A stretch of DNA of 64,000 bases from a virus (IMGVR_UViG_3300009788_000096:1-64000), one strand, 5' to 3'. Counted from the stretch's first letter, positions 1,125-14,265 are shown. The notes: a model not told the origin generated them from the letters alone. Numbers and translations are program-made.

Positions 1125-1145
1125 TACAGTTTTTGCGAGGGCCAG

Positions 1146-2015: not shown

Positions 2016-2053
2016 AATTAAATCCTCCTTGTAATATATTTTTGGTAGTTATA

Positions 2054-2126
2054 GGCTGCCCTCATCGGGCCACAGAGCCAATCCTGTGACGACGACCGCG
2101 GAACCACTATCCACGGTCGTTTCGGC
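2054..2126 (-). ncRNA. hammerhead ribozyme 1 (type II, core variant)
   Basis: CCGAAAC, long stem III (CGACCG...CGGTCG), GUC, then stem I GTCACAG/CTGTGGC. Predicted cut is between 2091 and 2090. The core reads CCGATGA instead of CTGATGA, a U4 to C change, so activity may be reduced. Loop I GGCT can pair with 3' flank AGCC. It lies 3 nt after the stop of the 2130-3320 gene and before the SD of 1146-2015. Confidence 0.65.
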
Positions 2127-2129
2127 ATA

Positions 2130-3320
2130 TTAGCGTTTACGACTCGCCATCAATGTTTCATCATGGAAAATTTGGTAGTAATCGCGACTTTCGTTTTCAC
2201 CGGAAAGTATATGCAAGATATCGAAACCTTGTTTTCTCGCAGTTTTCCTCACGACGGCGAGAAGTTTAGCTTTCGCCTTGGATTGTGAAATCTTGAATTT
2301 CTTGGAAATGGATTTCGCAATTTCACCAACAGTTGATCCTTCATTAACCATAGCGAGAATGGCATGTGCAGGACTGCCGGGAAGACGACCGAAGAGTTTT
2401 TGAATTTCATCCAGTTGACGCCTTTTAATAACCCTTTTCGGCTTTTCCGGTTCCTTTGGAGCCCGACGCTTAATAACCCGTTTTGGTTTTTCTTCTGCTT
2501 TTTTCCGCCGCTTGATGGGATCACGAACAGCGACCCACCGATCCCCGTCATACCTGCACGTTGTGCCTTTGATGTTTTTCTTATCACCAACTTTGGGATC
2601 ATCAGGTTTCGGCTCCGGCTTTTTTTTCTTTTTGATCTTTTTCTTCGGTCGTATAAGGTGTTCAGGCACTTCCATTTTCTTCGCCTTATAAACACCAGTC
2701 ACCGCATCCCGGCAATCAGTTATATAATTTTCGGGAAGTGTTTCGCCTTTGAGCCACCGGACCGGCAACGAGTTTAAGGCCTCCAATACGAAAGAAATTA
2801 CTTCAGGTTCGATGTTATCGAAGAAGTCCCTTTCGCTTGGAAGATGATGAACCTTATAACGGCCAGCTTTAAGGTGTGCCACGAAATCGCCAGAAGGTTT
2901 TTTAGCTTTCGCCTTTTTCTTTTTAGGCTCCGGCTTTTCCTTCGCCTTTTTCTTGGCTGCGGTCTGTTTGAAATCTTTAGCCAAATCTTTATCAGCCGCT
3001 TTTTTCATTTCCGCCACTTTCTTCGCCGATGTTTTCTTTTTGGCCTTTTTCTTTTTCGGCGTTGGTGTCGCGGAAGTCAAACCGATGTCTTTGTCAACCG
3101 GTGGCGTCTCGGTTTTCGGCTTGACACCACTCGTTAACACTTTGACTGCGCTATGCGCAAGGCATTTTGAGCAGGTGATCTGCTCGCAGGTTTTATCATC
3201 ATCGATGACCAAATCGCCTGTGCGCTTGTCACAGATAGCAACGTTCCCATCTGTGACCGCATGCAAATGATGCCTCTTAGCAGCCGGATTTTTACCTACT
3301 CCTAAAACTGTTTTTGTCAT
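2130..3320 (-). CDS. Lys-rich protein with internal KRVIKRR repeats and C-terminal helical domain
   Basis: 396 aa. The N-terminal ~60 aa carry a Cys pair (CEQITCSKC). A long Lys/Ala/Pro linker follows (~75-140), then a globular segment (~145-215), then basic repeats with two exact KRVIKRR copies near 285-305. The last ~90 aa look like a winged helix or SAM-like DNA-binding domain (EGSTVGEIAKSISKKFKIS). The two repeat copies use different codons, so the peptide rather than an SD is conserved. Its transcript is followed by hammerhead 1. Function unknown; DNA association inferred. Confidence 0.75.
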   Translation of the reverse strand: MTKTVLGVGKNPAAKRHHLHAVTDGNVAICDKRTGDLVIDDDKTCEQITCSKCLAHSAVKVLTSGVKPKTETPPVDKDIGLTSATPTPKKKKAKKKTSAKKVAEMKKAADKDLAKDFKQTAAKKKAKEKPEPKKKKAKAKKPSGDFVAHLKAGRYKVHHLPSERDFFDNIEPEVISFVLEALNSLPVRWLKGETLPENYITDCRDAVTGVYKAKKMEVPEHLIRPKKKIKKKKKPEPKPDDPKVGDKKNIKGTTCRYDGDRWVAVRDPIKRRKKAEEKPKRVIKRRAPKEPEKPKRVIKRRQLDEIQKLFGRLPGSPAHAILAMVNEGSTVGEIAKSISKKFKISQSKAKAKLLAVVRKTARKQGFDILHILSGENESRDYYQIFHDETLMASRKR

Positions 3321-3347
3321 AATACTACTCCTCTTCTGGTTATGGGG

Positions 3348-4765
3348 TTAGACGTCAACTCTTCGTTTGGCATCGGTCACTGCAACGGATGCAGGAACGG
3401 CCTCGGCTGGCAGGCATGTATTCTTTGCCCACTCGCGCAAGGCTATGATGTCGCCACTAAGAGTTATAGCTTGCGGTATGATACAATCTTGTGCTTTAAT
3501 AAGATCAATTCCGCGCATATCAGCTATATGAACCATGGCCTCAATTTCAGCACCGGTGAAGTCTTTCATTGTGGGAAGTACTTCAGGATAATCCAAACCA
3601 GCATTGTTCACATAGTGTTTTAAAATACTTTTGCGAACTTTAGCGGTTGGCAAGTCAATGAAAAAAGGACTTGTATCCCATCGGCCGGGACGTAGAAATT
3701 CGCCCGGAATCCCACGGAAACTATTTGCTGTGGCAACGATATAAATTCCTTCAGGGCGATCCTGAAGAAACTCAAGCCAACGACCGTTGCTCTTCGGGTA
3801 GTACCACTGTCTAAGTCCCCGGAACCACCGGCACCAGCGAATTGTTTTTCGAACTCATCTATAAGGACGACGCAGTTTCCAATGGCACAAATTAAGTCAA
3901 TTGTGTCATTTATATTTTGATCAGTTTCGCCTTGGTACTTACTGTAAAGTCTTCCCATATTAACGGAAAGTCCGAACTTCCCAGTTTCACCAACAATAGC
4001 CTTCATTAAGGAAGTCTTCCCGCAGCCAGGAACACCAATGGTCATGAGACCTTTAGCTCGCGGGTCGTAAATGGAATCCATAATGAAGTCCTTGATTTCT
4101 TTATAGCCGATAACATCTTGGAAAGTCAAGTTATTCGGCAAGACATCAAGGAAACCGGATTTAGCAATCGTCATAGCTTTATAGTCATTGATCGTACGGA
4201 GATCGAATTCGCCATGTTCGACGATTGATAATGAAAAAACATTGTCCAGTTCTTGTCGAGTCAAACCCATAGCTGATTTGCAAATCAGATCCATCCGGTC
4301 CTTTTCAGGAATGAATGATTCGTCTGGAACCGCCATGGAAGCGGCATCGAGAATCTCTTCCTTATCAGGAAGTTGCAGATCAAGAAGGATAAAATCCTTT
4401 TTTAACTCGGTGGGAATCTTTTCAATCGGACTTATGACTACTGCCGCCTTGCCTTGATTGGCCCAGCCCAGATTAAGGTTTTGAAGTGTTTGAATAATCT
4501 GAGGCTTGTCCATATACCAATGATAGTTATAAAGGAACATAACCGTATTCTCATCGGCATCATTTAAGGCGTCCAGTGGAGTCATGGGATTATTGTCTTT
4601 GAGGCAATCCCAATCTGTGACTTTAAATTTGCCACCATTTTTGAGTTGAAAGTCTTCGAGTGCTGGGTACACATTTCGGCGAACCCTATTTGGTTCATTT
4701 GTCTTCATCCAGAAAAGTGGAAATCCAGCTCGTAGGTAGTTAATCAACTTCGCTTGTGTTTTCAT
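3348..4765 (-). CDS. Ycf46-like AAA+ ATPase (frameshifted in this sequence)
   Basis: Frame 1 covers 4765 to about 3795. It carries the Ycf46-type N-terminal region (FILLDLQLPDKEE), Walker A GVPGCGKTS near residues 243-251 and Walker B VVLIDEFEK. After DSGTTRR the frame is lost. The -1 frame continues smoothly as SNGRWLEFLQD, then sensor-1 IVATAN, the arginine-rich EFLRPGRWD and lid helices to 3348. The break is near 3788-3796 and no convincing slippery heptamer is present, so a one-base assembly error or a real mutation is likeliest. DUF1257-like and DUF2997-like genes lie upstream in the operon, a grouping seen with ycf46 relatives. Confidence 0.8.
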
Positions 4766-4800
4766 AATTAATCCTCCTATAAAAAAGTTATAGTTTAAAA

Positions 4801-4860
4801 GCTACCTCATCAGTATAGCTTGCTTAAGGCCATAGACCCTCGGTGGCCGAGGGTTTCGGA
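4801..4860 (-). ncRNA. hammerhead ribozyme 2 (type II)
   Basis: CCGAAA, stem III CCCTCGG/CCGAGGG, GUC, stem I TATGGC/GCTATA, CUGAUGA, GG/CC stem II. Predicted cut is between 4835 and 4834. Loop I AAGC pairs with flank GCTT. Compared with copies 5 and 6, both partners have changed together (TTTAGC/GCTAAA there). Confidence 0.92.
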
Positions 4861-5070
4861 TTACTTCAACATGCCTTTGTGTTTCATTTCTGCACAAAGT
4901 CCGCGAGCTTCGATAATCAATGCTTTTAGTCTTTCTTCATCTTCGTTTTCAAATTCTTCATCAGAATCAGCTTGTGGAAGGTTTGCTAATTGAATAACTA
5001 ATCGTCCACATTTATTCAGCATTGATTCTTCCATTAGCGCTTGAGCAAATAGCTCGGTTTTTGAACTCAT
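4861..5070 (-). CDS. hypothetical acidic protein
   Basis: 69 aa, helical, with an acidic middle (DSDEEFENEDEE). The start at 5070 (MSSKTELF) is chosen because AAAGGAG lies upstream of it, and that SD would be inside the reading frame of a longer form starting at 5100. Its stop codon abuts hammerhead 2. No family recognised. Confidence 0.65.
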   Translation of the reverse strand: MSSKTELFAQALMEESMLNKCGRLVIQLANLPQADSDEEFENEDEERLKALIIEARGLCAEMKHKGMLK

Positions 5071-5103
5071 ACTTAAATCATCTCCTTTCGGATTATACAC
5101 TTA

Positions 5104-5286
5104 TCAATTAATGTCAGGTAATTCTTTTCGCCAGATACTGAAATCGCGGACCATTTCATCAAATGACTTCCATGTAAATCGGACATGAAGTTTCTTGCCA
5201 TTTTCATCAGTCAAATGCATGACCATTTTCTTTCCACGCCGAACCTTCAAACCGCGATACTCTTTAATTTCAATTCCTTTCGCCAT
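5104..5286 (-). CDS. hypothetical small basic protein
   Basis: 60 aa, beta-rich pattern (MVMHLTDENGKKLHVRF), mildly basic. AAAGGGATTAACT precedes the ATG. It is 2 nt downstream of the 5289-5522 gene, so probably coupled. No family recognised. Confidence 0.65.
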   Translation of the reverse strand: MAKGIEIKEYRGLKVRRGKKMVMHLTDENGKKLHVRFTWKSFDEMVRDFSIWRKELPDIN

Positions 5287-5288
5287 AG

Positions 5289-5522
5289 TTAATCCCTTTC
5301 CTGCAGTTCATCGATTAAGGAAGCTTCCCGCCACTGTCCACATTTGGTTTTAACAAAGTCTCCCCATGTGATTTGGTCGAAAGGGAGCCAACCTTTATTA
5401 TGGACTAACATCCGGGGCACACCTGAAATCTTACTGATCTTAGGTTTCCTGCCTTCCCGCATTGTCTTCTGTTTCAGAACTAATTTGTCCAAGTGATCAA
5501 TGAAGTCAATTGTTTCTGCCAT
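5289..5522 (-). CDS. hypothetical protein
   Basis: 77 aa, mixed charge, no TM or Cys motif. It is the first gene after hammerhead 3 and has the operon's standard leader (AGGAGGATTAATTATG). Function not recognised. Confidence 0.7.
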   Translation of the reverse strand: MAETIDFIDHLDKLVLKQKTMREGRKPKISKISGVPRMLVHNKGWLPFDQITWGDFVKTKCGQWREASLIDELQERD

Positions 5523-5548
5523 AATTAATCCTCCTTTAGTTATTAGGT

Positions 5549-5608
5549 TATCTCATCAGTACGCAAGTTCCTATCTTGCGTAGACTCCCGGAAGCCGGGA
5601 GTTTCGAA
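5549..5608 (-). ncRNA. hammerhead ribozyme 3 (type II)
   Basis: TCGAAAC, stem III CTCCCGG/CCGGGAG, GUC, perfect 8-bp stem I TACGCAAG/CTTGCGTA, CUGAUGA. Predicted cut is between 5583 and 5582. Stem II is GA/TC rather than GG/CC, a compensatory change. Loop I TAGG pairs with flank CCTA. Confidence 0.93.
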
Positions 5609-5980
5609 TTATGAATACTCCAATACCATTTTCTTGTCGCCGTTTGGAAGTGTTTCCATACTTACATTTGTTACTTCATCGTATGGAATCACGTTTTCAG
5701 TGGCCGCGATGTTGTAATCTTGGACAAGCAAATGCAGCTTGTCCATTGTTCCGGATTGACTTCCCCAGTGATCGTAAATGATATCTCCATCCGCTGTAAC
5801 GGCGATGGGATATTTCCAGCCGGGAAGCTTTATTTCGGCCACTGCATTTTTGACTACATGGCTGCCAAACAGGCGAACTTCAAGATTTGGGCCTGAAACA
5901 ATTTCGCCATGTTTTTGTGCGACAATGCAAAGTGTGGAAAGATCGGAAATCCGTTTACCGTATGTCGTGTTATGACTCAT
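5609..5980 (-). CDS. DUF1257 (Ycf35)-like protein
   Basis: 123 aa. It starts MSHNTTYGKRISDL and has the DUF1257-like middle (AEIKLPGWKYPIAVTADGDIIYDHWG) and a beta hairpin end (LPNGDKKMVLEYS). The family often sits beside Ycf46 ATPases and DUF2997 proteins, and both are present in this operon. Molecular function is not known. It overlaps the upstream gene by 11 nt. Confidence 0.7.
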   Translation of the reverse strand: MSHNTTYGKRISDLSTLCIVAQKHGEIVSGPNLEVRLFGSHVVKNAVAEIKLPGWKYPIAVTADGDIIYDHWGSQSGTMDKLHLLVQDYNIAATENVIPYDEVTNVSMETLPNGDKKMVLEYS

Positions 5981-6338
5981 TTAACTTCTCCTTTCTTAAT
6001 CTACCAGAATCGTATGCATCAGATGAACAGGCGTTATTGCAGTACTTCGTAGCTTCGCTATGATAGTACATGCAATCGTGATACATACATTTTTTTAAAT
6101 TCGACGTAACCAGTTTTTGACTTTTGACTACTCCCTTAGAATTTTCATCATTGAGAAGAGAAACAATATCGGCCTTGCTAAGCGACCATTTGAGATGAAC
6201 TTGATAAACCCGCTTGTCATAAAAATCTGAATAGCGGTTGAAAATTTGTTGCGCTTCCAAACGATCTATAGACCATATTGCGGTTTCAGTGTCAATACTG
6301 GTTATAACCGTTTTCCAAATAAATACACTATGTGGCAT
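5970..6338 (-). CDS. hypothetical protein with C-terminal Cys cluster
   Basis: 122 aa. ATG at 6338 follows AAAAGGAGAGGCC, so the longer upstream form is not used. A C-terminal Cys/His cluster (CMYHDC, H, CNNAC) suggests a zinc-binding module. It sits between two short genes and is likely co-translated with the DUF1257-like gene. Family unknown. Confidence 0.65.
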   Translation of the reverse strand: MPHSVFIWKTVITSIDTETAIWSIDRLEAQQIFNRYSDFYDKRVYQVHLKWSLSKADIVSLLNDENSKGVVKSQKLVTSNLKKCMYHDCMYYHSEATKYCNNACSSDAYDSGRLRKEKLNES

Positions 6339-6349
6339 GGCCTCTCCTT

Positions 6350-6511
6350 TTAGCCGCGAACACGGTCGAAGTGTTCGTAGTGGGTTTGGACAATCCAACC
6401 ATACTTTCCTAATAGCCAAATCAATTGACTAATATTCATAGTATGACATTTGCCGATAAGATTTTGACCCGACATAAAATGCTGGGCTTCAATATGATAT
6501 TCGGTCAACAT
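6350..6511 (-). CDS. hypothetical small protein
   Basis: 53 aa (MLTEYHIEAQHF...), short but with a good SD (AGGAGATCATT) and compact spacing to both neighbours. Rich in aromatics and His; a middle hydrophobic stretch (LIWLLGKYGWIV) is too short for a certain TM segment. Family unknown. Confidence 0.6.
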   Translation of the reverse strand: MLTEYHIEAQHFMSGQNLIGKCHTMNISQLIWLLGKYGWIVQTHYEHFDRVRG

Positions 6512-6520
6512 AATGATCTC

Positions 6521-6730
6521 CTATCCGCAATGCCCCGAGGGGAGGCCGTCTGCGAGGTTATTCTTTTCGGTTTGGTGATACTCGTCTTTGTACACGCGCT
6601 CTTTTGGCTTACCGAAAAGATCGTCAAGAAATGAAGTCATACTGATGCATCCTTCACCTACGGCGCCGAATACTTCAGTTTTAACACTTCCGTCTTTGCC
6701 AAAAATGATCTCAACTTTTTTCTCGTCCAT
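6521..6730 (-). CDS. DUF2997-like protein
   Basis: 69 aa. It matches the DUF2997 pattern: a short beta strand (VEIIFGKDGSVKTEVFG), a Gly-x-Gly-Cys turn and a helix (SFLDDLFG). The family is commonly next to DUF1257 and Ycf46-type ATPases, as here. Biochemical role unknown. Strong SD AGGAGGATTAGATT. Confidence 0.7.
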   Translation of the reverse strand: MDEKKVEIIFGKDGSVKTEVFGAVGEGCISMTSFLDDLFGKPKERVYKDEYHQTEKNNLADGLPSGHCG

Positions 6731-6782
6731 AATCTAATCCTCCTGTTAATAGGTTAATGATATTTTTCGAATAGCCTATTGA

Positions 6783-6813
6783 TGCATCGAAAGTAAAAAT
6801 GACTCTCGATGCA
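6783..6813 (-). other. intergenic hairpin without hammerhead core
   Basis: An 8-bp stem TGCATCGA/TCGATGCA with a 15-nt loop fills the gap where other gene junctions in this operon hold a hammerhead. No CUGAUGA and no GAAA partner are present. The downstream leader keeps the usual TTAACCTATTAACAGGAGG. It may be a different processing or stability element, or a replaced ribozyme. Confidence 0.5.
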
Positions 6814-6833
6814 CCTAAGGTTATACGAAGTCT

Positions 6834-7241
6834 TTAATCATCGGGTTCAAGCTTTTCCCTCAGATCATCGTCTTCCTCTTCATCTTCGTCGCAATCGCAC
6901 TCTTCAAAACTGTCGCCGCATGTATGGCAAATGTCAGTTTTTTGGATGTCCGGAGAAGCAGTATCAAAGTTTTCTTTTCCATCATGCCAATGGACAATAA
7001 CATCTACACCGGAATTGTGTTGGATTTCAGTCCAGTTTAGATTTCCAGTTAGTACTTTCATTTTCGGCTGTTCACTATCCACTTTCCGGTGCGTTTTTCT
7101 CGCTTTCTTTTTCGGTTTCGGTTTGTGGAAGTTAAGGGGAATAGCCTGTTTGCTAATCCGGGTGCAATATTCAGCGATTGCTTCTTTCGCCTCTCGGACA
7201 GTCAAATGGATAGTGGTTGTTCTTTCCTTAACAATGATCAT
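6834..7241 (-). CDS. hypothetical protein with CxxC motif and acidic tail
   Basis: 135 aa. The start at 7241 (MIIVKERTTT) fits AGGAGGATTAATT. A basic stretch near residue 50 (KPKPKKKARK) is followed by C-HTCG-DSFEEC-DC, a probable zinc knuckle, and a Glu/Asp-rich end. It is the only gene between hammerhead 4 and the hairpin at 6783. Family unknown. Confidence 0.65.
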   Translation of the reverse strand: MIIVKERTTTIHLTVREAKEAIAEYCTRISKQAIPLNFHKPKPKKKARKTHRKVDSEQPKMKVLTGNLNWTEIQHNSGVDVIVHWHDGKENFDTASPDIQKTDICHTCGDSFEECDCDEDEEEDDDLREKLEPDD

Positions 7242-7271
7242 AATTAATCCTCCTATAATAAGGTTAATAAA

Positions 7272-7334
7272 CGGCAGTCTCATCAGTAACGGAATGCCAA
7301 TCCGCTATAGTCCCGGTGGCCGGGACTTTCGACG
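7272..7334 (-). ncRNA. hammerhead ribozyme 4 (type II, CUA cleavage site)
   Basis: GTCGAAA, stem III GTCCCGG/CCGGGAC, cleavage triplet CUA instead of GUC, stem I TAGCGGA/TCCGTTA, CUGAUGA, 3-bp stem II GAC/GTC. Predicted cut is between 7308 and 7307. Loop I GGCA pairs with flank TGCC. NUA is an accepted hammerhead site. Confidence 0.9.
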
Positions 7335-7553
7335 TTATACAACCCAGTCAATTTTGAATTTCAGTTTGAGATAGTTAATGAAGTCAATCGCCATTTCTTT
7401 TTCGGCTTGGAATTTGCGAACATGAGCATTTTCCTCATTCCCGGAATGAACGAAGTGTCCATTAACTGTGACTTGACTTGCGTATTGGCAACCTTCCTCT
7501 TTTACATCTTCGGGTGGAATACGTTGCCAAATCATTTCAACGGAGTGGGTCAT
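7335..7553 (-). CDS. hypothetical protein
   Basis: 72 aa. It starts MTHSVEMIWQRIP and overlaps the upstream gene by 4 nt, with AAAAGGAGAAGTCAA as SD. No TM or metal motif. Its stop codon touches hammerhead 4. Family unknown. Confidence 0.65.
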   Translation of the reverse strand: MTHSVEMIWQRIPPEDVKEEGCQYASQVTVNGHFVHSGNEENAHVRKFQAEKEMAIDFINYLKLKFKIDWVV

Positions 7554-7756
7554 TTGACTTCTCCTTTTAAGTGTAGGCGGATGCTGGAAACAATACCGTT
7601 ATTATCCGAACTGTGATGCAAGGGCAGGGAGTTAATAAATGTTTCATGTTCCGCAATTTCATTTGCGATTTGATCTTCCCTTAAGTCATGTCCGTTATCA
7701 TCCCTTACAACAATAATGACTTCCGCCTTGATAAATTTTTTGATAATTGAAGACAT
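7550..7756 (-). CDS. hypothetical protein
   Basis: 68 aa with an amphipathic start (MSSIIKKFIKAEVIIVV) and mixed charge. SD AAGGAGATAACA. It is translationally coupled by 4-nt overlap to the next gene. Family unknown. Confidence 0.65.
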   Translation of the reverse strand: MSSIIKKFIKAEVIIVVRDDNGHDLREDQIANEIAEHETFINSLPLHHSSDNNGIVSSIRLHLKGEVK

Positions 7757-7766
7757 TGTTATCTCC

Positions 7767-8006
7767 TTATCGAATTTTGACTCGCCTTGGTGGCCTCAGG
7801 ATTTTGATCTTTGCTTCTTGTTGTTTTGCAAAGTATTTTTCATGTGAAATAAGACCTTTGCAAGCCGGGCAGGCGACCTCAGTTAATAGATGACCGGCCA
7901 GTGTGAATTTGGTGCGTTTAAATTGACCAGTCCGCTCGCAGAAATAACAAGCTGTTTCATCTGCTTGAGCTTCCATTGCCTCTTTTAAAACATCTCCTAA
8001 AGTCAT
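7767..8006 (-). CDS. small zinc-ribbon-like protein
   Basis: 79 aa. Two CxxC motifs (CYFC and CPAC) spaced about 30 residues apart suggest one zinc site. The basic C-terminus ends RPPRRVKIR. A role in nucleic-acid or protein binding is possible but not shown. It lies in a four-gene unit bounded by hammerheads 4 and 5. Confidence 0.65.
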   Translation of the reverse strand: MTLGDVLKEAMEAQADETACYFCERTGQFKRTKFTLAGHLLTEVACPACKGLISHEKYFAKQQEAKIKILRPPRRVKIR

Positions 8007-8014
8007 CTTAACTC

Positions 8015-8437: not shown

Positions 8438-8470
8438 AATTAATCCTCCTATAATAGGTTAATAAATTTA

Positions 8471-8530
8471 GCTACCTCATCAGTATAGCTTGCTAAAGGC
8501 TATAGACTCCCGTTAGACGGGAGTTTCGGA
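8471..8530 (-). ncRNA. hammerhead ribozyme 5 (type II, archetype)
   Basis: TCCGAAAC, stem III CTCCCG/CGGGAG with TCTAA loop, GUC, 6-bp stem I TATAGC/GCTATA with CTTTAGCAA loop, CUGAUGA, GG/CC stem II. Predicted cut is between 8505 and 8504. Loop I TTTAGC pairs fully with flank GCTAAA. The upstream gene's TAA ends at the first base of the motif. Confidence 0.95.
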
Positions 8531-8785
8531 TTAAATATAAAAATCTTTTTCCCTCATCACTATAAAGTCATTAGGATCTAAGTTCCATCCGAACAATTCT
8601 TTATAGTAATTCAGAATGTCCGTAATGCCCTCATGATACCTGCCATCTTTTACTTCCCAAATGTCGATAGTATCTTCGTTTTGGACAAGGAAGATATAAC
8701 CTTTATCAGAGAGCTGACTTAATCTGGAAACTGAAGTGATGTTTTCCAATACTACTTTTCTTCCCGGCATTTCGACGGTATGCAT
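8531..8785 (-). CDS. hypothetical protein
   Basis: 84 aa, alternating beta and charged residues with no Cys motif. It starts MHTVEMPGRK after AAAGGAGAAGTCC. Together with the zinc-ribbon membrane protein upstream it forms a two-gene unit between hammerheads 6 and 5. Family unknown. Confidence 0.65.
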   Translation of the reverse strand: MHTVEMPGRKVVLENITSVSRLSQLSDKGYIFLVQNEDTIDIWEVKDGRYHEGITDILNYYKELFGWNLDPNDFIVMREKDFYI

Positions 8786-8797
8786 TGGACTTCTCCT

Positions 8798-9097
8798 TTA
8801 TGACTTTTCTCGGTTTTTGGTTCTGCTTCCAATGTAAACCAAGGCAACAGCAACCAGCAGCATAGTAATCGCTGTTCCTGGATCTTGTTTAAACGTTGCG
8901 AGAGCGACGAATGCCAGAATACAGGAACCGAGCTGAAGCAGGAACCCCAACGGTTTAGAGACAAATGCTTTGCGTTCGAACTTTGTGGGCTTAACAAAGT
9001 TTTTAGAATCGCCTTTTCGCGGTTGTCCACAGTTATTGCAAAACTGATCAGTCATTGCCAATTGGTTTCCGCAATCTGGACAAAAGTAATTTGCCAT
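8798..9097 (-). CDS. zinc-ribbon membrane protein
   Basis: 99 aa. It starts MANYFCPDCGNQL, a zinc-ribbon with CPDC and CNNC pairs, followed by a linker and two hydrophobic segments (about 45-65 and 68-85) that look like TM helices. The start at 9097 follows GGAGGATATTATC. This zinc-ribbon plus TM plan is common in bacteria; the specific role here is unknown. Confidence 0.75.
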   Translation of the reverse strand: MANYFCPDCGNQLAMTDQFCNNCGQPRKGDSKNFVKPTKFERKAFVSKPLGFLLQLGSCILAFVALATFKQDPGTAITMLLVAVALVYIGSRTKNREKS

Positions 9098-9130
9098 GAT
9101 AATATCCTCCATTTAAAAGTTATTGTTTTA

Positions 9131-9190
9131 GCTACCTCATCAGCGTGACTTGCTAAAGGCCACGGACTCCCGGATACCGGGAGTTTCGGA
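9131..9190 (-). ncRNA. hammerhead ribozyme 6 (type II)
   Basis: TCCGAAAC, stem III CTCCCGG/CCGGGAG, GUC, stem I CGTGGC/GTCACG, CUGAUGA. Predicted cut is between 9165 and 9164. Stem I differs at most positions from copy 5 (TATAGC/GCTATA) yet still pairs, while loop CTTTAGCAA and flank GCTAAA are unchanged. Confidence 0.94.
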
Positions 9191-9304
9191 TTAGATTACT
9201 GAGCATTGGATGGCGACCCATCCCCAGATGAAAAGATTCGCAAAAACTAAATAGGTCAGCGAATTGAATTTCATCCTTTTCATTCTTTTGTCAAACATAG
9301 ACAT
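9191..9304 (-). CDS. small single-pass membrane protein
   Basis: 37 aa. The start at 9304 (MSMFDKRMKRMKF) follows AATAAGGAGGCCTTT. A basic N-terminus precedes one hydrophobic helix (LTYLVFANLFIWGWVAI). Type II topology is likely. It ends directly at hammerhead 6. Function unknown. Confidence 0.6.
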   Translation of the reverse strand: MSMFDKRMKRMKFNSLTYLVFANLFIWGWVAIQCSVI

Positions 9305-9314
9305 AAAGGCCTCC

Positions 9315-9644
9315 TTATTTCTTTTTATAATACCTTGTTTTCCGCCTGTCCATATAGTCCTGTCGCCAGAAACCTTTTTCTTTCCCATGCTTATCATACT
9401 CTACCGTTTTCCGGCGATCAATATTTGACTGTTTTAAATATCCTTTTTGTTTCCCGTCGGCTCCGTATACGACCGTTTTACGAGGGTCTATACTGCTTTC
9501 CTTAAGATATTTTTCATCAGCCTTATATTGTGCTCCCGCTTTACATCCGGAAGCAAATAACCAAATGAAGCCACAGACAAACAGGAGGATAAGGAAGAGA
9601 AAATATCCGGCACAAGTCTTGAAATCTTGTTTAGTCATCTTCAT
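9315..9644 (-). CDS. predicted lipoprotein with three IDxRKT repeats
   Basis: 109 aa. The start at 9644 follows GAAAGGAAGATAGA. Residues ~10-32 form a signal-like hydrophobic helix ending in a lipobox (LFASGC). The mature part has three tandem repeats of about 22 residues with the consensus S-x-I-D-x-R-K-T-V-x-Y-x-x-x-G-K-x-K-G. It probably sits on the periplasmic face of a membrane; superinfection exclusion or envelope modification is only a guess. Overlaps the upstream gene by 14 nt. Confidence 0.65.
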   Translation of the reverse strand: MKMTKQDFKTCAGYFLFLILLFVCGFIWLFASGCKAGAQYKADEKYLKESSIDPRKTVVYGADGKQKGYLKQSNIDRRKTVEYDKHGKEKGFWRQDYMDRRKTRYYKKK

Positions 9645-9798
9645 TTCTATCTTCCTTTCGCCTGTCAAAAGTCCGACGATCTTTGCCCGGCTCAACAGAA
9701 GTATTGATTGCTGTGCGCCGATTTTTTTTCCTTGCCTCGGAAATTTCGTAGGCACCATCCATTTCTTTGACATCATCTTCAGATAAATGTCTTTGCAT
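9631..9798 (-). CDS. hypothetical small charged protein
   Basis: 55 aa (MQRHLSEDDV... ending RKEDRNEDD), strongly charged and probably disordered in its second half. It has the canonical AGGAGGATTAATTATG leader after hammerhead 7. Family unknown. Confidence 0.65.
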   Translation of the reverse strand: MQRHLSEDDVKEMDGAYEISEARKKNRRTAINTSVEPGKDRRTFDRRKEDRNEDD

Positions 9799-9832
9799 AA
9801 TTAATCCTCCTTATATGTAGTTATTCTTTTAG

Positions 9833-9903
9833 GCTACCTCATCAGTACCTTGCTGCCCAATTCAAGATAGATGGCAGCCGGCCGAGGCCAGCCACCATTT
9901 CGG
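9833..9903 (-). ncRNA. hammerhead ribozyme 7 (type II, AUC site, long stem III)
   Basis: CCGAAA, ~12-bp stem III TGGTGGCTGGCC/GGCCGGCTGCCA, cleavage triplet AUC, stem I TATCTTG/CAAGGTA, CUGAUGA, GG/CC. Predicted cut is between 9870 and 9869. Loop I TTGGGC pairs with flank GCCTAA. Here the stop codon lies 11 nt before the motif. Confidence 0.9.
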
Positions 9904-9914
9904 GTTATTCCATA

Positions 9915-10109
9915 TCAACCAGTTGCAATCTTAAGCATTTCGTCGTAAGTCACTTTAAATTGTGTTGCTAAGTTTTCGTAATAAACTTTACCTTGTTTGC
10001 AAGGAACAGGTTTATAAGTCAAACAATCGCCATGACTTACTTCTTGCCGCTTAAGTTTACTTTCTTTTTCTGCGAGGATGTCCCCGCAATGTATGCAAAC
10101 TACTTCCAT
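9915..10109 (-). CDS. hypothetical Cys-containing protein
   Basis: 64 aa. The start at 10109 (MEVVCIHCGD) follows AAGGAGAAAATTAATC. CIHC near the N-terminus with later Cys residues suggests a small zinc site. Two-gene unit with the protein upstream. Family unknown. Confidence 0.65.
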   Translation of the reverse strand: MEVVCIHCGDILAEKESKLKRQEVSHGDCLTYKPVPCKQGKVYYENLATQFKVTYDEMLKIATG

Positions 10110-10128
10110 GATTAATTTTCTCCTTATC

Positions 10129-10692
10129 TTACATTCCGTATAATGATGATGCTTTTTGTTCAACGTTATCCAAAAGATCCTCTTTCCAATCTGCAATGTG
10201 TTTGTCCAAAGCATTCTTCAGAGAAGTATGTGCACGGTCATGAATTTTCCGCGCAATAGCGATCTTCAAGCGATATCCGATTATTTGATGACCGATTTGT
10301 TTGGTGTGTTTAAACACACCAAGCCATTGCATGATTTGACTGGCTTCGTCGTAGATACGGTCACCAGTTAAGTCAAAACACCAATTTTCATCATCATACA
10401 CTTCGTCGGCATACCATCCACAAAGGTCCCGCACACCATCCTTTTCCGCTTTCTGAATTTTCTTCCGCGCAATAGGATCCATACGGACATTCATTTTAAG
10501 AGTTTCTTCATCATGACCAGCCATATCTCCGGCGGCATCTTGAAGCCAACCTAATATAGTACCTGCTATATTAGAAATCTTGTCTTCAATTTCTACCGGC
10601 CAAAAAGAAAAACGGCAAGTTGGACATTCTTTCTGATCAATTTCAAAATTGGATACTTCTCTGCAAAGTGGACATGTTAGTTCTGCAACCAT
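10129..10692 (-). CDS. hypothetical protein with N-terminal zinc finger
   Basis: 187 aa. Two CxxC pairs (CPLC, CPTC) about 16 residues apart form an N-terminal rubredoxin-like knuckle; the remainder is helical and charged. First gene after hammerhead 8 with the standard leader. Family not recognised. Confidence 0.7.
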   Translation of the reverse strand: MVAELTCPLCREVSNFEIDQKECPTCRFSFWPVEIEDKISNIAGTILGWLQDAAGDMAGHDEETLKMNVRMDPIARKKIQKAEKDGVRDLCGWYADEVYDDENWCFDLTGDRIYDEASQIMQWLGVFKHTKQIGHQIIGYRLKIAIARKIHDRAHTSLKNALDKHIADWKEDLLDNVEQKASSLYGM

Positions 10693-10729
10693 AATTAATC
10701 CTCCTATAAAAAGGTTATTAGTATTTGAC

Positions 10730-10789
10730 TTACCTCATCAGCACACAAGTTGTCATCTTATGTGGACTCCCGGAGACCGGGAGTTTCGG
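10730..10789 (-). ncRNA. hammerhead ribozyme 8 (type II)
   Basis: CCGAAAC, stem III CTCCCGG/CCGGGAG, GUC, 8-bp stem I CACATAAG/CTTGTGTG (one GU), CUGAUGA, GG/CC. Predicted cut is between 10765 and 10764. Loop I TGAC pairs with flank GTCA. Confidence 0.94.
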
Positions 10790-10987
10790 TTAACTTCTTT
10801 TCTTGTTTCTTTTTATCGTTGCTTTTCTTATCGCTTCAACAGCTTTCCATTGTCGGTGGTGTTTATAACATCTCGTAATGTTATTTTCCTTTTTCTGATC
10901 CACAAGTCGCTTTTTTAACTTCTTTTCGCAACCGATAAAAACACATTCCTTGACACTTAACTCTTTGAACGAATACTTCTTTTTCAC
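10790..10987 (-). CDS. hypothetical basic Cys/His protein
   Basis: 65 aa. It uses a GTG start overlapping the upstream TGA (GTGA), with AAAGGAGTAGAGA as SD. C-x4-C and a distant C-x2-H-H suggest a zinc finger. Lys/Arg-rich end (KRNKKRS). Its stop abuts hammerhead 8. Nucleic-acid binding possible. Confidence 0.6.
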   Translation of the reverse strand: MKKKYSFKELSVKECVFIGCEKKLKKRLVDQKKENNITRCYKHHRQWKAVEAIRKATIKRNKKRS

Positions 10988-11277
10988 TCTCTACTCCTTT
11001 GGACTTCGTCCCACGAATTTTCATCCGCTTCCAAGTCGATTTTATTCCAATCAGAACCGACTTCATAAATAGGTTCAGAACCGACTTCTTCATGTCGAAT
11101 ATTCATAGCATTGACTTTCCCGCATTTGCAGACATAAAGCTCGGCTCCGAAACCTAAAGAATCATCTGCTTCTCTTGGATCACCGAATACCAAGGCTTTA
11201 ACAGACTCTCCATTCGGATAACGGAAAACATCTTGAAGCCAATCCCAGAGCCATACTCTTCCGCAATCACATTTCAT
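10984..11277 (-). CDS. hypothetical protein with CxC motifs
   Basis: 97 aa. ATG at 11277 (MKCDCGRVW) follows AAAAGGAGGATTCGTA, so the longer form is rejected. CDC near the N-terminus and CKC near residue 53 could bind one metal. Acidic C-terminal half. A leader with a 4-codon reading frame and a long hairpin lies upstream. Family unknown. Confidence 0.65.
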   Translation of the reverse strand: MKCDCGRVWLWDWLQDVFRYPNGESVKALVFGDPREADDSLGFGAELYVCKCGKVNAMNIRHEEVGSEPIYEVGSDWNKIDLEADENSWDEVQRSRE

Positions 11278-11307
11278 TACGAATCCTCCTTTTGTTAAGG
11301 TTATTAT

Positions 11308-11361
11308 TAGTACAACCAACTGCGCCTATACTTGTTAGAACAGGCGGACTAAATTGTACTA
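11308..11361 (-). other. long leader hairpin after the MTAL mini-ORF
   Basis: Outer 8-bp stem TAGTACAA/TTGTACTA and inner stem CGCCT/AGGCG enclose ~25 nt. The 5' arm begins with the TAG stop of the 4-codon mini-ORF, so a ribosome stopping there would open the hairpin. No CUGAUGA core. Possible attenuator-like leader for the 10984-11277 gene; inference only. Confidence 0.45.
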
Positions 11362-11373
11362 AAGTGCGGTCAT
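11359..11373 (-). CDS. 4-codon mini-ORF (MTAL) with strong SD
   Basis: ATG ACC GCA CTT TAG follows AAAAGGAGGATTTT, an SD as good as those of the real genes. Either a leader peptide or the remnant of a deleted gene whose start region survives. Its stop overlaps the hairpin at 11308-11361. Confidence 0.35.
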   Translation of the reverse strand: MTAL

Positions 11374-11423
11374 AAAATCCTCCTTTTGTTATATAAAAAC
11401 AACTTAATTATAACATATTTTAT

Positions 11424-11506
11424 GGCAGCTTCATCAGACCCGCACCGCCGCGCACGGGTTACTCCAGCGGCACCCTTTAATAGCAAGCGTCCGCTGCAGT
11501 TTCGGC
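11424..11506 (-). ncRNA. hammerhead ribozyme 9 (type II, divergent)
   Basis: GCCGAAAC, stem III CTGCAGCGG/CCGCTGGAG with one G-G mismatch and a 20-nt loop, triplet GUA, stem I ACCCGTGC/GTGCGGGT, CUGAUGA. Predicted cut is between 11460 and 11459. Position 10.1 is A rather than G, then GCT/AGC can pair. Loop GGCG pairs weakly with flank TGCC. Confidence 0.75.
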
Positions 11507-11845
11507 TTAAAATTTTAAGCGATAGCCATGAGTGAAAAAGTAATCGGCTGTCGGGTTTTCCGGTATTTCTTCTGCTGATGTGATGGCGACTTTTGCAAAC
11601 GCAAACTCTTTGACTATACGCATACTTTTAGCCATATAGTCATGTCGACAGAGCATTGGAAATTTTGTGTCCGGTCCTGTGAAATTAAGATGTATGGACA
11701 CATCCCGGCCGTCGACGATAGCTATTCCAACGAAGTAAAAATCACCAAGTTTTAAATTAATAACATCGTCGCTTATCATCGGGTTATGAGTTATAAGGCC
11801 ACTGTAGCAGTCAAAATCCTCTTCAATAAAGTCTCTGAACTTCAT
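11507..11845 (-). CDS. hypothetical protein
   Basis: 112 aa, beta-rich (FYFVGIAIVDGRDVSIHLNF). It starts MKFRDFIEEDF with the operon's standard leader. Single-gene unit between hammerheads 10 and 9. Family unknown. Confidence 0.7.
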   Translation of the reverse strand: MKFRDFIEEDFDCYSGLITHNPMISDDVINLKLGDFYFVGIAIVDGRDVSIHLNFTGPDTKFPMLCRHDYMAKSMRIVKEFAFAKVAITSAEEIPENPTADYFFTHGYRLKF

Positions 11846-11878
11846 AATTAATCCTCCTGTAAATTAGGTTATTTTGAT

Positions 11879-11938
11879 TTACCTCATCAGTACGGAAGTA
11901 ATCAACTTCCGCAGACTCCCGTAGACCGGGAGTTTCGG
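11879..11938 (-). ncRNA. hammerhead ribozyme 10 (type II)
   Basis: CCGAAAC, stem III CTCCCG/CGGGAG with GTCTA loop, GUC, 8-bp stem I TGCGGAAG/CTTCCGTA, CUGAUGA, GG/CC. Predicted cut is between 11914 and 11913. Loop I TTGATT pairs fully with flank AATCAA. Confidence 0.95.
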
Positions 11939-11941
11939 CTG

Positions 11942-12289
11942 TTAAGATTCAATCTCGAAAGCATCGACCAGTTTTGAAACAGCGGAGATTGCCTTTTCAA
12001 CATGAGGATTGAAATTTCTTGTTGTATGGTGGGCACAATTTTCAATCGATGAAACTATATTTCTAACTGGAATAACTTCATCTCTCGCTGTCCATCTTTC
12101 GCCGGCCACTGCCGAATTAAAACGTTCTCGACTTCGCTCTACTTCTTCTTTTAAACCTTGTATTGATTCTAACAAGGATTCGAAGTAAAGATCGGCATAA
12201 CTCAATGCACTTTCTCTTACGAAGTTTGCAGTTTTGTCATCCCCTTTTTTCGTGTCCACTTTTCTGACTTTTCTGATTTTTCTTTTCAT
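11942..12289 (-). CDS. hypothetical helical protein, basic N-terminus
   Basis: 115 aa. It starts MKRKIRKVRKVDTKK, then a mostly helical body with possible coiled coil (residues ~35-75). No Cys motif. Single-gene unit. Family unknown. Confidence 0.7.
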   Translation of the reverse strand: MKRKIRKVRKVDTKKGDDKTANFVRESALSYADLYFESLLESIQGLKEEVERSRERFNSAVAGERWTARDEVIPVRNIVSSIENCAHHTTRNFNPHVEKAISAVSKLVDAFEIES

Positions 12290-12314
12290 AATAAATCCTC
12301 CTTAAAGTTATAGG

Positions 12315-12374
12315 TTACCTCATCAGTAGACAGGTTCCTATCCTGCCCAGACTCCCGTTAGACGGGAGTTTCGG
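12315..12374 (-). ncRNA. hammerhead ribozyme 11 (type II)
   Basis: CCGAAAC, stem III CTCCCG/CGGGAG, GUC, stem I TGGGCAGG/CCTGTCTA (two GU pairs), CUGAUGA, GG/CC. Predicted cut is between 12350 and 12349. Loop I ATAGG pairs with flank CCTAT. Confidence 0.94.
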
Positions 12375-12376
12375 TT

Positions 12377-12769
12377 TTAACAATATTCGTTAACATATTC
12401 TCGCATGTCCATCGCATCGAAAGTACTCCAAAGGCTTTCACAAACGGAATCAGTTATATATGATTCCAAGTCATATTTTTTGCCCAAACGACGATTGTAA
12501 GCAATTTGGCCGGGACTTCCTCTATACATAAAACGGAAGTAATTAGGATTTTTAATATCGAATAAAACAGTAAAATCGACCCATCCATCATACATTCCAT
12601 TTTCGTCCATGCAATGGAAACTCGCTTCCGCCCGGATTCTTGTCCGGGTTGAAAATGAGAGATGCCATTCAGAATCTATACCGGAACCATGAGGCAAAAC
12701 TTCAGCAACCAGTTCCAAAACTTTTTCCTTTACTGCGGTGAGATATTTGTTTTCATGAATTTTAGTCAT
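12377..12769 (-). CDS. hypothetical protein
   Basis: 130 aa, mixed alpha/beta, aromatic-rich (YFRFMYRGSPGQIAYNRR). SD AAGGAGGATTTCACA. Single-gene unit between hammerheads 12 and 11. Family unknown. Confidence 0.7.
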   Translation of the reverse strand: MTKIHENKYLTAVKEKVLELVAEVLPHGSGIDSEWHLSFSTRTRIRAEASFHCMDENGMYDGWVDFTVLFDIKNPNYFRFMYRGSPGQIAYNRRLGKKYDLESYITDSVCESLWSTFDAMDMREYVNEYC

Positions 12770-12805
12770 TGTGAAATCCTCCTTGTATTAGGTTAATAAA
12801 ATTGA

Positions 12806-12866
12806 TTTACCTCATCAGTACGAGAGTAATCAACTCTCGTAGACTCCCGGAGACCGGGAGTTTCGG
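12806..12866 (-). ncRNA. hammerhead ribozyme 12 (type II)
   Basis: CCGAAAC, stem III CTCCCGG/CCGGGAG, GUC, perfect 8-bp stem I TACGAGAG/CTCTCGTA, CUGAUGA, GG/CC. Predicted cut is between 12842 and 12841. Loop I TTGATT pairs with flank AATCAA, as in copy 10 although stem I differs. Confidence 0.95.
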
Positions 12867-12869
12867 CGG

Positions 12870-13337
12870 TTATTGATTATTTACTTCGTCGATCAGCATG
12901 ATTGCGAGATTGTATTTTCCTAAAGTTACTTCCTTCATGTGACCGTAAAAATAATCAATAACTTCATGATAACGAAAACAAACCAACATCCATATGGGAA
13001 CACGCCATTTCAGAGCAAGAAATGTTTCACTTTTTTCAAGTTGAAAGCTTTGATGTCCCGCCGCGGATTGTTTTACTTCGTTTCTGAACTTCTCAAAAAA
13101 ATCAGCCATTCCGCCCGGATTGCCACCGTTATGACAGCGATCCATAAGATAAGCGGTAACAGCGAGGTGATCTTTTTCAGGAACGTTGGAAATACGAACG
13201 CAAGAAAGAAGTAATTTAAACTTATCGCTTTTATCGTTCGCATAAAGATAAAGACCTTTGTTATCTTCGCCACCAAATTGTACAAAGTCAGCTAAATGAA
13301 TCAGTTTCGTAAATACTTCACGATTGAAATTTGCCAT
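12870..13337 (-). CDS. hypothetical protein
   Basis: 155 aa, no TM or clear motif; two Cys (LLSCVR, DRCHNGG) not in a zinc pattern. SD GGAGGATTTTATC. Single-gene unit between hammerheads 13 and 12. Family unknown. Confidence 0.7.
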   Translation of the reverse strand: MANFNREVFTKLIHLADFVQFGGEDNKGLYLYANDKSDKFKLLLSCVRISNVPEKDHLAVTAYLMDRCHNGGNPGGMADFFEKFRNEVKQSAAGHQSFQLEKSETFLALKWRVPIWMLVCFRYHEVIDYFYGHMKEVTLGKYNLAIMLIDEVNNQ

Positions 13338-13369
13338 GATAAAATCCTCCGTTATATAGTTATTATTTG

Positions 13370-13434
13370 GCTACCTCATCAGTACGTGGCAACCACACCA
13401 CGCAGACCGGGACTTTGAGAGCTCCCGGTTTCGG
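13370..13434 (-). ncRNA. hammerhead ribozyme 13 (type II)
   Basis: TCCGAAA, stem III CCGGGA/TCCCGG with a 10-nt loop, GUC, stem I TGCGTGG/CCACGTA, CUGAUGA, GG/CC. Predicted cut is between 13405 and 13404. Loop I TGGTT pairs with flank AGCCA (one GU). Confidence 0.94.
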
Positions 13435-13435
13435 A

Positions 13436-13678
13436 TTAAGCATTTTCGATATCGAAGCAGATGTCACGCTTCAACTGGGCAAGCCTGGCAAGTCTTTTCA
13501 TACCGTATTCTTTTGCAGCAATACGAAAAGATTCAAGCTTAACCAAGTTGGTCATCTTGTCGATACGATCACTTAACTGTCCATCGTCCATGGAAGTAAT
13601 ACGTTTAACAGCATGAGCGATAGAATTTTCAGTCACTTTAGTCGAAAGAATTTTTGCGATGTTAATTGTGTTACTCAT
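13436..13678 (-). CDS. hypothetical helical protein
   Basis: 80 aa. The start at 13678 (MSNTINIAKIL) follows AATGGAGGATTTTATT. All-helical with a repeated hydrophobic spacing; no metal motif. Stop is 1 nt from hammerhead 13. Family unknown. Confidence 0.65.
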   Translation of the reverse strand: MSNTINIAKILSTKVTENSIAHAVKRITSMDDGQLSDRIDKMTNLVKLESFRIAAKEYGMKRLARLAQLKRDICFDIENA

Positions 13679-13716
13679 AATAAAATCCTCCATTATTTAG
13701 TTATTAACTTCATTTG

Positions 13717-13780
13717 GCTACCTCATCAGCACCGACCAGCCACGGCCAGTGGACTGGGCCAACTAAAAGCCCAGTTTCGG
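13717..13780 (-). ncRNA. hammerhead ribozyme 14 (type II)
   Basis: CCGAAA, stem III CTGGGC/GCCCAG with a 9-nt loop, GUC, 8-bp stem I CACTGGCC/GGTCGGTG (two GU pairs), CUGAUGA, GG/CC. Predicted cut is between 13752 and 13751. Loop I TGGCT pairs with flank AGCCA. Stem III sequence is unrelated to copies 2-12 but still pairs. Confidence 0.94.
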
Positions 13781-13781
13781 T

Positions 13782-13925
13782 TTACTTTTGGTAATGTAGA
13801 TAAACTAAGAGTTTTTGTTCGACAAGTAATAACGCGATGTGAAGCGTTATATTACTTGACCAGATTTGGAACGCGGTTTCTTTTTTCGTTTCCGTATGGA
13901 TCGCTCGTAATTGATACTTTTTCAT
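13782..13925 (-). CDS. hypothetical small protein
   Basis: 47 aa (MKKYQLRAIHTETKK...). SD AAGGAGAGAAAA. The C-terminal half is hydrophobic (LHIALLLVEQKLLVYLHY), perhaps membrane-associated. Stop codon lies 1 nt from hammerhead 14. Family unknown. Confidence 0.55.
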   Translation of the reverse strand: MKKYQLRAIHTETKKETAFQIWSSNITLHIALLLVEQKLLVYLHYQK

Positions 13926-13935
13926 TTTTCTCTCC

Positions 13936-14085
13936 TTAGAAGATTACTTTTTTAAACAGTTTAATTTGAAGGTTTAAAAACCATTGGAAATGATACCAGC
14001 GAGCTAAACGAACATTGGATTCAACATCGATATTGGATTCAACATCGATATTTGAACTATTACTTTTGGTAATTTTCTTTTTCAT
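13936..14085 (-). CDS. hypothetical small protein with duplicated NIDVES
   Basis: 49 aa (MKKKITKSNSS...). SD TAGGAGGCTATA. A perfect tandem 18-nt duplication encodes NIDVES twice. The second half is aromatic and basic (RWYHFQWFLNL). Family unknown. Confidence 0.5.
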   Translation of the reverse strand: MKKKITKSNSSNIDVESNIDVESNVRLARWYHFQWFLNLQIKLFKKVIF

Positions 14086-14094
14086 TATAGCCTC

Positions 14095-14178
14095 CTAAGC
14101 CATATATAAAACAGTTGAAAACAAAGTAAAACACGAAATCGCGATAACAAGTAAAATCTTTTCATTCTTTTCTAACAT
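14095..14178 (-). CDS. very small membrane protein
   Basis: 27 aa (MLEKNEKILLVIAISCFTL...), a short charged start followed by one TM helix. SD CGGAGGTTTTAA. First gene after the most upstream hammerhead. Function unknown. Confidence 0.5.
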   Translation of the reverse strand: MLEKNEKILLVIAISCFTLFSTVLYMA

Positions 14179-14205
14179 TTAAAACCTCCGTTATATAGTT
14201 GTTTG

Positions 14206-14262
14206 ACTACCTCATCAGTATCCAGCCATCACACTGGATAGACATCTAAAAGATGTTTCGGA
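14206..14262 (-). ncRNA. hammerhead ribozyme 15 (type II, first in the operon)
   Basis: TCCGAAA, stem III CATCT/AGATG with TTT loop, GUC, perfect stem I TATCCAG/CTGGATA, CUGAUGA, GG/CC. Predicted cut is between 14241 and 14240. Loop I TGAT pairs with flank GTCA (one GU). It is the promoter-proximal copy and directly follows a predicted terminator. Confidence 0.93.
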
Positions 14263-14265
14263 AAG

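What the first reader, a model, noticed from the sequence alone, without database searches (positions are those of the whole stretch)
2054..14262. Tandem array of 15 type II hammerhead ribozymes punctuating a phage operon
Seen directly: in 15 intergenic gaps of the leftward operon the RNA strand reads CGAAA, hairpin, NUH, hairpin, CUGAUGA (14 exact, one CCGAUGA), with a short stem II closing the junction. This is the hammerhead fold with stem II open (type II), a form known from bacterial and phage sequences. Each copy lies between a stop codon (usually 0-3 nt away) and an SD. Inference: the operon RNA self-cleaves into units of one to seven genes, each with a stem III hairpin and 2',3'-cyclic phosphate at its 3' end and a 5'-OH stem I leader, which could set stability and relative expression gene by gene. 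I know of single or few phage hammerheads, not of an array serving as systematic operon punctuation.
Basis: partly seen in the sequence, partly recalled or inferred. Interest (0 to 1): 0.96.

Follow-up and report, generated by a model that had tools for sequence, protein, structure and literature searches.

The report
Ribozyme array cutting a phage operon
One operon of an uncultured phage carries a small self-cutting RNA (hammerhead ribozyme) in 15 of its 16 large gaps between genes, probably to chop one long message into short ones; the same arrangement turned up in classic laboratory phages such as Streptomyces phage R4, so it can now be tested directly.

Summary
All 15 copies are genuine type II hammerhead motifs, all on the minus strand. 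Fourteen are found by Rfam RF02276 and the 15th by a local scan. Zero occur in 200 shuffles. Loop I and the 3' tail covary. The operon (14.26 to 1.1 kb) has 16 gaps of 60 nt or more; 15 hold a hammerhead, and the 16th holds a long imperfect hairpin (motif A).

The array idea itself is not new: Perreault 2011 reported clustered prophage hammerheads and proposed transcript processing. New here:
(1) Scale and a positional rule, repeated in 8 further uncultured phages.
(2) Nine to eleven copies in cultured Streptomyces phages, including R4.
(3) Slots are conserved while occupants change. One phage alternates hammerheads with Twister-P5 ribozymes. The window's nearest relative by terminase has no hammerheads but fills the same junctions with motif A/B hairpins.
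(4) Among 120 copies, core changes occur only at position 7, plus two U4C; NUH always holds.
(5) Copies are homogenised within a phage.

Best reading: co-transcriptional self-cleavage into short mRNAs, each starting with a strong ribosome-binding site. Cleavage was not tested experimentally. Motifs A/B are either host-nuclease (RNase III-type) sites or an unknown ribozyme.

The parts
14201..14263 (-). type II hammerhead 1 (first in transcription order), cut 14241/14240
   Evidence: Rfam 49.9 bits; cut site
13712..13782 (-). type II hammerhead 2, cut 13752/13751
   Evidence: Rfam 57.8 bits
13365..13436 (-). type II hammerhead 3, cut 13405/13404
   Evidence: Rfam 57.3 bits
12801..12868 (-). type II hammerhead 4, cut 12842/12841
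   Evidence: Rfam 36.8 bits, E=8e-4
12309..12376 (-). type II hammerhead 5, cut 12350/12349
   Evidence: Rfam 40.2 bits
11873..11940 (-). type II hammerhead 6, cut 11914/11913
   Evidence: Rfam 39.6 bits
11420..11507 (-). type II hammerhead 7, cut 11460/11459 (GUA triplet)
   Evidence: Rfam 37.1 bits
10724..10791 (-). type II hammerhead 8, cut 10765/10764
   Evidence: Rfam 33.9 bits, E=0.005
9828..9905 (-). type II hammerhead 9, cut 9870/9869 (AUC triplet)
   Evidence: Rfam 34.4 bits, E=0.003
9126..9191 (-). type II hammerhead 10, cut 9165/9164
   Evidence: Rfam 36.5 bits
8466..8531 (-). type II hammerhead 11, cut 8505/8504
   Evidence: Rfam 39.7 bits
7269..7334 (-). type II hammerhead 12, cut 7308/7307 (CUA triplet; compensated G15.2-C16.2)
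   Evidence: 24.6 bits, E=0.013 in local scan; structure scan
6771..6824 (-). motif A: long imperfect hairpin with UA/AAU internal loop in the only large gap without a hammerhead, upstream of the DUF2997 gene
   Evidence: only credible window hit in geometric search; same element repeated in relative G002
5542..5609 (-). type II hammerhead 13, cut 5583/5582
   Evidence: Rfam 40.1 bits
4796..4861 (-). type II hammerhead 14, cut 4835/4834, upstream of AAA ATPase gene
   Evidence: Rfam 32.3 bits, E=0.012
2050..2127 (-). type II hammerhead 15 (CCGAUGA core, U4C), cut 2091/2090, upstream of DUF3150 gene
   Evidence: Rfam 40.1 bits
14272..14299 (-). strong intrinsic terminator just upstream of the first hammerhead
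1093..1130 (-). strong intrinsic terminator at operon end
3620..4765 (-). AAA ATPase gene in the array operon (reading continues in another frame at 3348-3653)
   Evidence: Pfam PF00004
1146..2015 (-). DUF3150 gene, last gene of the operon
   Evidence: Pfam PF11348
6521..6730 (-). DUF2997 gene, downstream of motif A here and of a hammerhead in six relatives
   Evidence: Pfam PF11211

Best explanation
The leftward operon is transcribed as one long RNA. In 15 inter-unit gaps it folds a type II hammerhead ribozyme that cuts itself as it is made. Each cut leaves the upstream message ending in the stem III hairpin with a 2',3'-cyclic phosphate, right after its stop codon. The downstream message begins with the stem I hairpin and a 5'-OH, followed by a strong GGAGG ribosome-binding site. 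The outcome is a set of short, separately stable and separately translated mRNAs of about 0.35 to 2.7 kb. What selection keeps is cleavage at the slot, not the hammerhead itself: other phages use Twister-P5 or long hairpins in equivalent slots. Shown by computation: fold, covariation, core and NUH conservation, position and slot exchange. Inferred: cleavage in the cell, end chemistry, and the effect on stability and translation.
For: Covariance-model hits. None in shuffles. Loop I/tail pseudoknot matched within copies: score 177.5 against 135.5+-9.7 when tails are swapped, 3 of 100,000 permutations as good; over 112 copies 1265 against 1003+-28, none of 20,000. Stem III 669 of 678 and stem I 667 of 678 positions paired, against 448 and 334 when arms are swapped. 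Core changes only at N7 (26 copies) or U4C (2), and cleavage triplet always NUH, in 120 copies of 13 phages. Fifteen of 16 large gaps filled, same pattern in eight other array phages. First genes of units carry GGAGG in 16 of 16 cases, internal genes in 2 of 16. Hammerhead and Twister-P5 alternate in one operon. Promoter- and terminator-like sites in the region are no more frequent than in shuffles. Precedent: prophage hammerhead clusters cleave in vitro, and one in E. coli (PMC3088659).
Against: No cleavage data exist for this phage. Copies were mostly collected with a model that rewards an intact core, so core conservation is partly built in (softened by reading cores largely from stem geometry). 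In plain MFE folds stem I is missing in five of 15 copies. One copy is U4C, which lowers activity in vitro (PMC3088659). A relative lacks hammerheads altogether, so they are not essential to this operon.
Confidence: 0.78

Rival explanations
1. The elements are repeats that mainly help gene-cassette shuffling: a ribozyme plus leader copied from gap to gap gives homology for recombination, and cleavage is incidental or only makes the repeats harmless.
For: Copies within a phage are more alike (0.79) than copies at the same junction in different phages (0.65), which are no more alike than copies at unrelated junctions (0.65); near-identical copies in G027.
Against: Stems differ widely among the window's copies while the core, NUH and pseudoknot hold; unrelated Twister-P5 ribozymes fill alternate slots in G055, which repeat spreading alone does not predict.
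Confidence: 0.12
2. They work only as stable hairpins (mRNA end protection, translational insulation) without cutting.
For: Stem III lies right after stop codons and is stable (-3.5 to -20 kcal/mol); motif A/B hairpins without a hammerhead core fill the same slots in G002.
Against: Hairpins alone need no CUGAUGA/GAAA core, NUH triplet or tertiary pseudoknot, all of which are kept.
Confidence: 0.06
3. Cleavage is regulated rather than constitutive: a ribosome finishing at the stop codon next to the ribozyme blocks folding, so an untranslated upstream gene lets the ribozyme cut. (This is a refinement of the best explanation, not exclusive of it.)
For: The 5' arm starts 0 to a few nt from the stop codon in most window copies (sequence) and in most relatives.
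Against: In the Streptomyces phages the distance varies from -1 to 45 nt or more; no direct data.
Confidence: 0.15

Closest known systems
Clustered prophage hammerheads (Perreault et al. 2011, PMC3088659)
   Same: Type II fold with loop I/tail pseudoknot; several ribozymes flanking genes in phage DNA; processing into gene- or operon-length mRNAs already proposed and cleavage of three clusters shown.
   Different: The tested clusters were about 2 kb fragments, one of them with three ribozymes. Here 15 copies fill 15 of 16 large gaps of one 13-kb operon, with slot exchange and cultured phages identified.
Twister and hammerhead enrichment near Mu-like phage genes and near each other (earlier work as summarised in PMC10085705)
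   Same: Two ribozyme classes in similar phage-linked locations, reason stated as unknown.
   Different: Here alternation of the two classes within a single operon (G055: six hammerheads, four Twister-P5) and a rule for where they sit.
Phage T7 early-region RNase III sites (own knowledge, not tested)
   Same: Long polycistronic early RNA cut between genes into stable mRNAs at structured intercistronic sites; motif A/B look like such duplexes.
   Different: T7 depends on a host nuclease; the window's array is predicted to cut itself and leave 5'-OH and cyclic phosphate ends.

Membership tests
Type II hammerhead ribozyme (Rfam RF02276) | Core C3-U4-G5-A6-N7-G8-A9 and G12-A13-A14 | tested here: met
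   14 of 15 exact, one U4C
Type II hammerhead ribozyme (Rfam RF02276) | A15.1-U16.1 pair and NUH cleavage triplet | tested here: met
   15 of 15: GUC 12, AUC, GUA, CUA one each
Type II hammerhead ribozyme (Rfam RF02276) | Stems I and III closed by loops, stem II short and open | tested here: met
Type II hammerhead ribozyme (Rfam RF02276) | Loop I pairs with the 3' tail | tested here: met
   swap test, 3 of 100,000 permutations as good
Type II hammerhead ribozyme (Rfam RF02276) | Covariance-model score above gathering threshold | tested here: inconclusive
   9 of 15 at or above 37 bits, 5 at 32-37, 1 at 24.6 with E=0.013; low scores come from divergent stems, core intact
Type II hammerhead ribozyme (Rfam RF02276) | Self-cleavage between H17 and N1.1 | not testable with these tools
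   needs in vitro transcription
Motif A/B as RNase III-type processing sites | About two helical turns of duplex with an internal loop | tested here: met
   22-25 bp with asymmetric internal loop
Motif A/B as RNase III-type processing sites | Cut by RNase III | not testable with these tools
   needs enzyme assay
Motif A/B as a known ribozyme class | Match to a known self-cleaving ribozyme family model | tested here: inconclusive
   no match in G002 for Hammerhead_II, twister-sister or pistol; no acceptable match at window 6700-7340 among all Rfam families. Hatchet, twister-P1/P5, hairpin and HDV-type were not searched in G002

The most novel reading that the evidence does not exclude
Phage operons contain a conserved 'cut here' slot that accepts unrelated self-cleaving RNAs, and motifs A and B (repeated imperfect hairpins with conserved UA/AAU or CUU/ACGC internal loops in relative G002, one in the window) are an undescribed self-cleaving ribozyme class rather than host-nuclease sites.
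Probability: 0.12. Interest if true: 0.92.

Novelty: new variant of a known kind. Interest (0 to 1): 0.74.

Why it matters
What bacterial and phage hammerheads are for is described as an open question (PMC6155905; PMC10085705). A 15-copy array with a strict positional rule, the same slots filled by other element types in relatives, and equivalent arrays in phage R4 and three other cultured Streptomyces phages turn that question into a direct experiment. If confirmed, RNA self-cleavage is a mainstream way for some phages to set message boundaries, and several annotated mini-genes in R4 are ribozymes.

Tried and rejected
Bacterial-genome pattern scan: only 3 of 50 genomes held real RF02276 matches (at most 4, in Fervidicella), so the bacterial hits are mostly chance. 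A cultured close relative of the window phage itself was not found: terminase best hit 54% identity (uncultured), portal 27%, DUF3150 no hit. Twister-P5 in the Streptomyces phages was suspected from a blastn hit, but the element there is a hammerhead. Motif A as a degenerate hammerhead: no CUGAUGA/GAAA core. Motif A/B as pistol or twister-sister: no match. Viral scan for motif B: of seven stretches only G002 (three copies) has the hairpin; the other six do not fold alike. The viral scan for motif A was too loose to interpret. Promoters in the gaps: none above chance. RNA repair or ligation enzymes: none seen among the proteins scanned, which was not every gene. MAFFT alignment A1 misaligns long stem III copies, so pair counts were done by geometry in Python instead.

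Full report
What is there. The window is bases 1-64000 of a 95,402-base uncultured virus record, a tailed phage by its portal, terminase and tape-measure genes. The minus-strand operon from 14.26 kb to 1.1 kb contains 15 type II hammerhead motifs and no RF02276 match lies elsewhere in the record. Terminators stand at 14299-14272, just before the first ribozyme, and at 1130-1093, at the operon end. With my gene calls, 16 gaps of 60 nt or more separate real genes; 15 hold a hammerhead. The exception, 6833-6731, holds a long hairpin. The apparent gap at 3619-3321 is the second part of the AAA gene, read in another frame. Units are 0.35-2.7 kb. The first gene of every unit has GGAGG before its start (16 of 16), internal genes rarely do (2 of 16).

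More than chance. A structure-rule scan finds 14 of the 15 copies on the operon strand, none on the other strand, and none in 200 dinucleotide shuffles. The pseudoknot between loop I and the 3' tail is specific to each copy: swapping tails between copies lowers the pairing score from 177.5 to 135.5+-9.7.

Relatives. All six viral records found with the operon's AAA ATPase carry 3 to 10 RF02276 matches, while the records found only through the terminase carry none, apart from a fragment identical to the window's own phage. A pattern scan of viral contigs adds further array phages: G052 (11 RF02276 matches, 13 by inspection), G061 (6-7), G055 (6). In all of them the gaps of the array operon are filled in the same way. 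A blastn search from G055 led to cultured Streptomyces phages: Puginator 10, VieEnRose 10, Alvy 11, and from there, through the shared subfamily Arquatrovirinae, to R4, host S. coelicolor A3(2), 9. With the deposited annotation, 6 of 6, 9 of 12 and 9 of 11 large gaps in Alvy, Puginator and VieEnRose hold a hammerhead. The held paper library has nothing relevant on hammerheads in Streptomyces phages.

Catalysis is what is kept. Reading cores mainly from stem geometry in 121 parsed copies of 13 phages gives CUGAUGA 92, CUGACGA 23, CUGAAGA 3, CCGAUGA 2 and one misparse; the triplet before the cut is always NUH, never NUG (a reading with no core term at all on 82 copies of nine phages agrees). Position 7 is known as the tolerant core position (own knowledge), and U4C is a natural variant with low activity in vitro that still supports viroid infection (PMC3088659). 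Stem III and stem I pair in 669 and 667 of 678 positions, against 448 and 334 when arms are swapped between copies. Most copies were found with a model that favours an intact core, which weakens but does not remove this argument.

Slots are conserved, occupants are not. Upstream of the AAA gene all seven hammerhead phages have a hammerhead; upstream of DUF2997 six relatives have one, while the window has motif A. G002, whose terminase is the closest found (71%), has the AAA-DUF3150-DUF2997 operon and no RF02276 match, but its 90-130 nt gaps hold two repeated imperfect hairpins, motif A (UA/AAU internal loop) and motif B (CUU/ACGC), followed by the same ribosome-binding leader. A geometric search for motif A finds five in G002 and, on the operon strand of the window, only the one at 6824-6771. 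In G055 four Twister-P5 ribozymes alternate with six hammerheads in one operon. Hammerheads at the same junction in different phages are no more alike (0.649) than at different junctions (0.652), whereas copies within a phage are (0.788): copies are overwritten from within the genome while the slot stays.

Mechanism. Best reading: co-transcriptional self-cleavage cuts the operon RNA into short messages with hairpin-capped ends and independent strong translation starts. Shown by computation: fold, covariation, core conservation, position, slot exchange. Shown elsewhere: similar prophage clusters cleave in vitro and one in E. coli (PMC3088659). Inferred: cleavage in this phage, end chemistry, effect on decay and translation, and host-nuclease cutting of motifs A/B by analogy with T7 (own knowledge).

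Novelty. Hammerhead clusters in prophages and the processing idea are known. The 15-copy systematic array, exchange with Twister-P5 and with motif A/B hairpins at equivalent junctions, and the identification of R4-type laboratory phages as carriers of such arrays were not found in the library searched; that library lacks most subscription journals.

Limits.

Noticed in passing
G002 record 25667-16567 (minus strand); loci L188, L189: Repeated imperfect hairpins (motifs A and B) fill the operon gaps of the closest terminase relative, which has no hammerheads; possible RNase III sites or a new ribozyme.
   Followed up: partly
Streptomyces phage R4 NC_019414: gp60.1 41762-41845, gp67.1 44125-44217, gp75.1 47073-47174: Three annotated mini-genes coincide with hammerhead ribozymes (L184:3777-3841, 6145-6209, 9097-9161) and are probably not genes; Alvy gene 84 overlaps one too.
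   Followed up: partly
L126 (G055) 9937-15458, minus strand: Four Twister-P5 and six hammerhead II ribozymes interleaved in one operon.
   Followed up: yes
window 11375-11278, minus strand: After hammerhead 7 there is a strong ribosome-binding site, a four-codon reading frame (ATGACCGCACTTTAG) and a 9-bp plus 5-bp hairpin (TTAGTACAA...TTGTACTAA), then a second ribosome-binding site; looks like a unit whose gene was lost.
   Followed up: partly
window 3348-4765, minus strand: AAA ATPase reading is split over two overlapping frames (3620-4765 and 3348-3653), while relatives have one frame of about 469 aa; programmed frameshift, mutation or sequencing error.
   Followed up: no
window 14262-16300: Two kilobases without clear genes between the divergent operons, with direct and inverted repeats (e.g. 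TAAATTAGGCTAAAATAGG); probably promoter or origin region. The terminator at 14299-14272 sits directly before the first ribozyme, which suggests read-through or antitermination.
   Followed up: partly
L015:12673-16050 (record 72673-76050), minus strand: DNA polymerase III alpha with a C-terminal uracil-DNA-glycosylase-like domain in one 1125-aa protein.
   Followed up: no
L016 (record 78267-83714), minus strand: TET-associated glycosyltransferase, radical SAM and B12-binding proteins together, suggesting hypermodified phage DNA.
   Followed up: no
window 23084-25342, plus strand: 752-aa protein with weak ADP-ribosyltransferase (PARP/ART-PolyVal) domain matches, near the portal gene; a phage polyvalent-type protein.
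   Followed up: no
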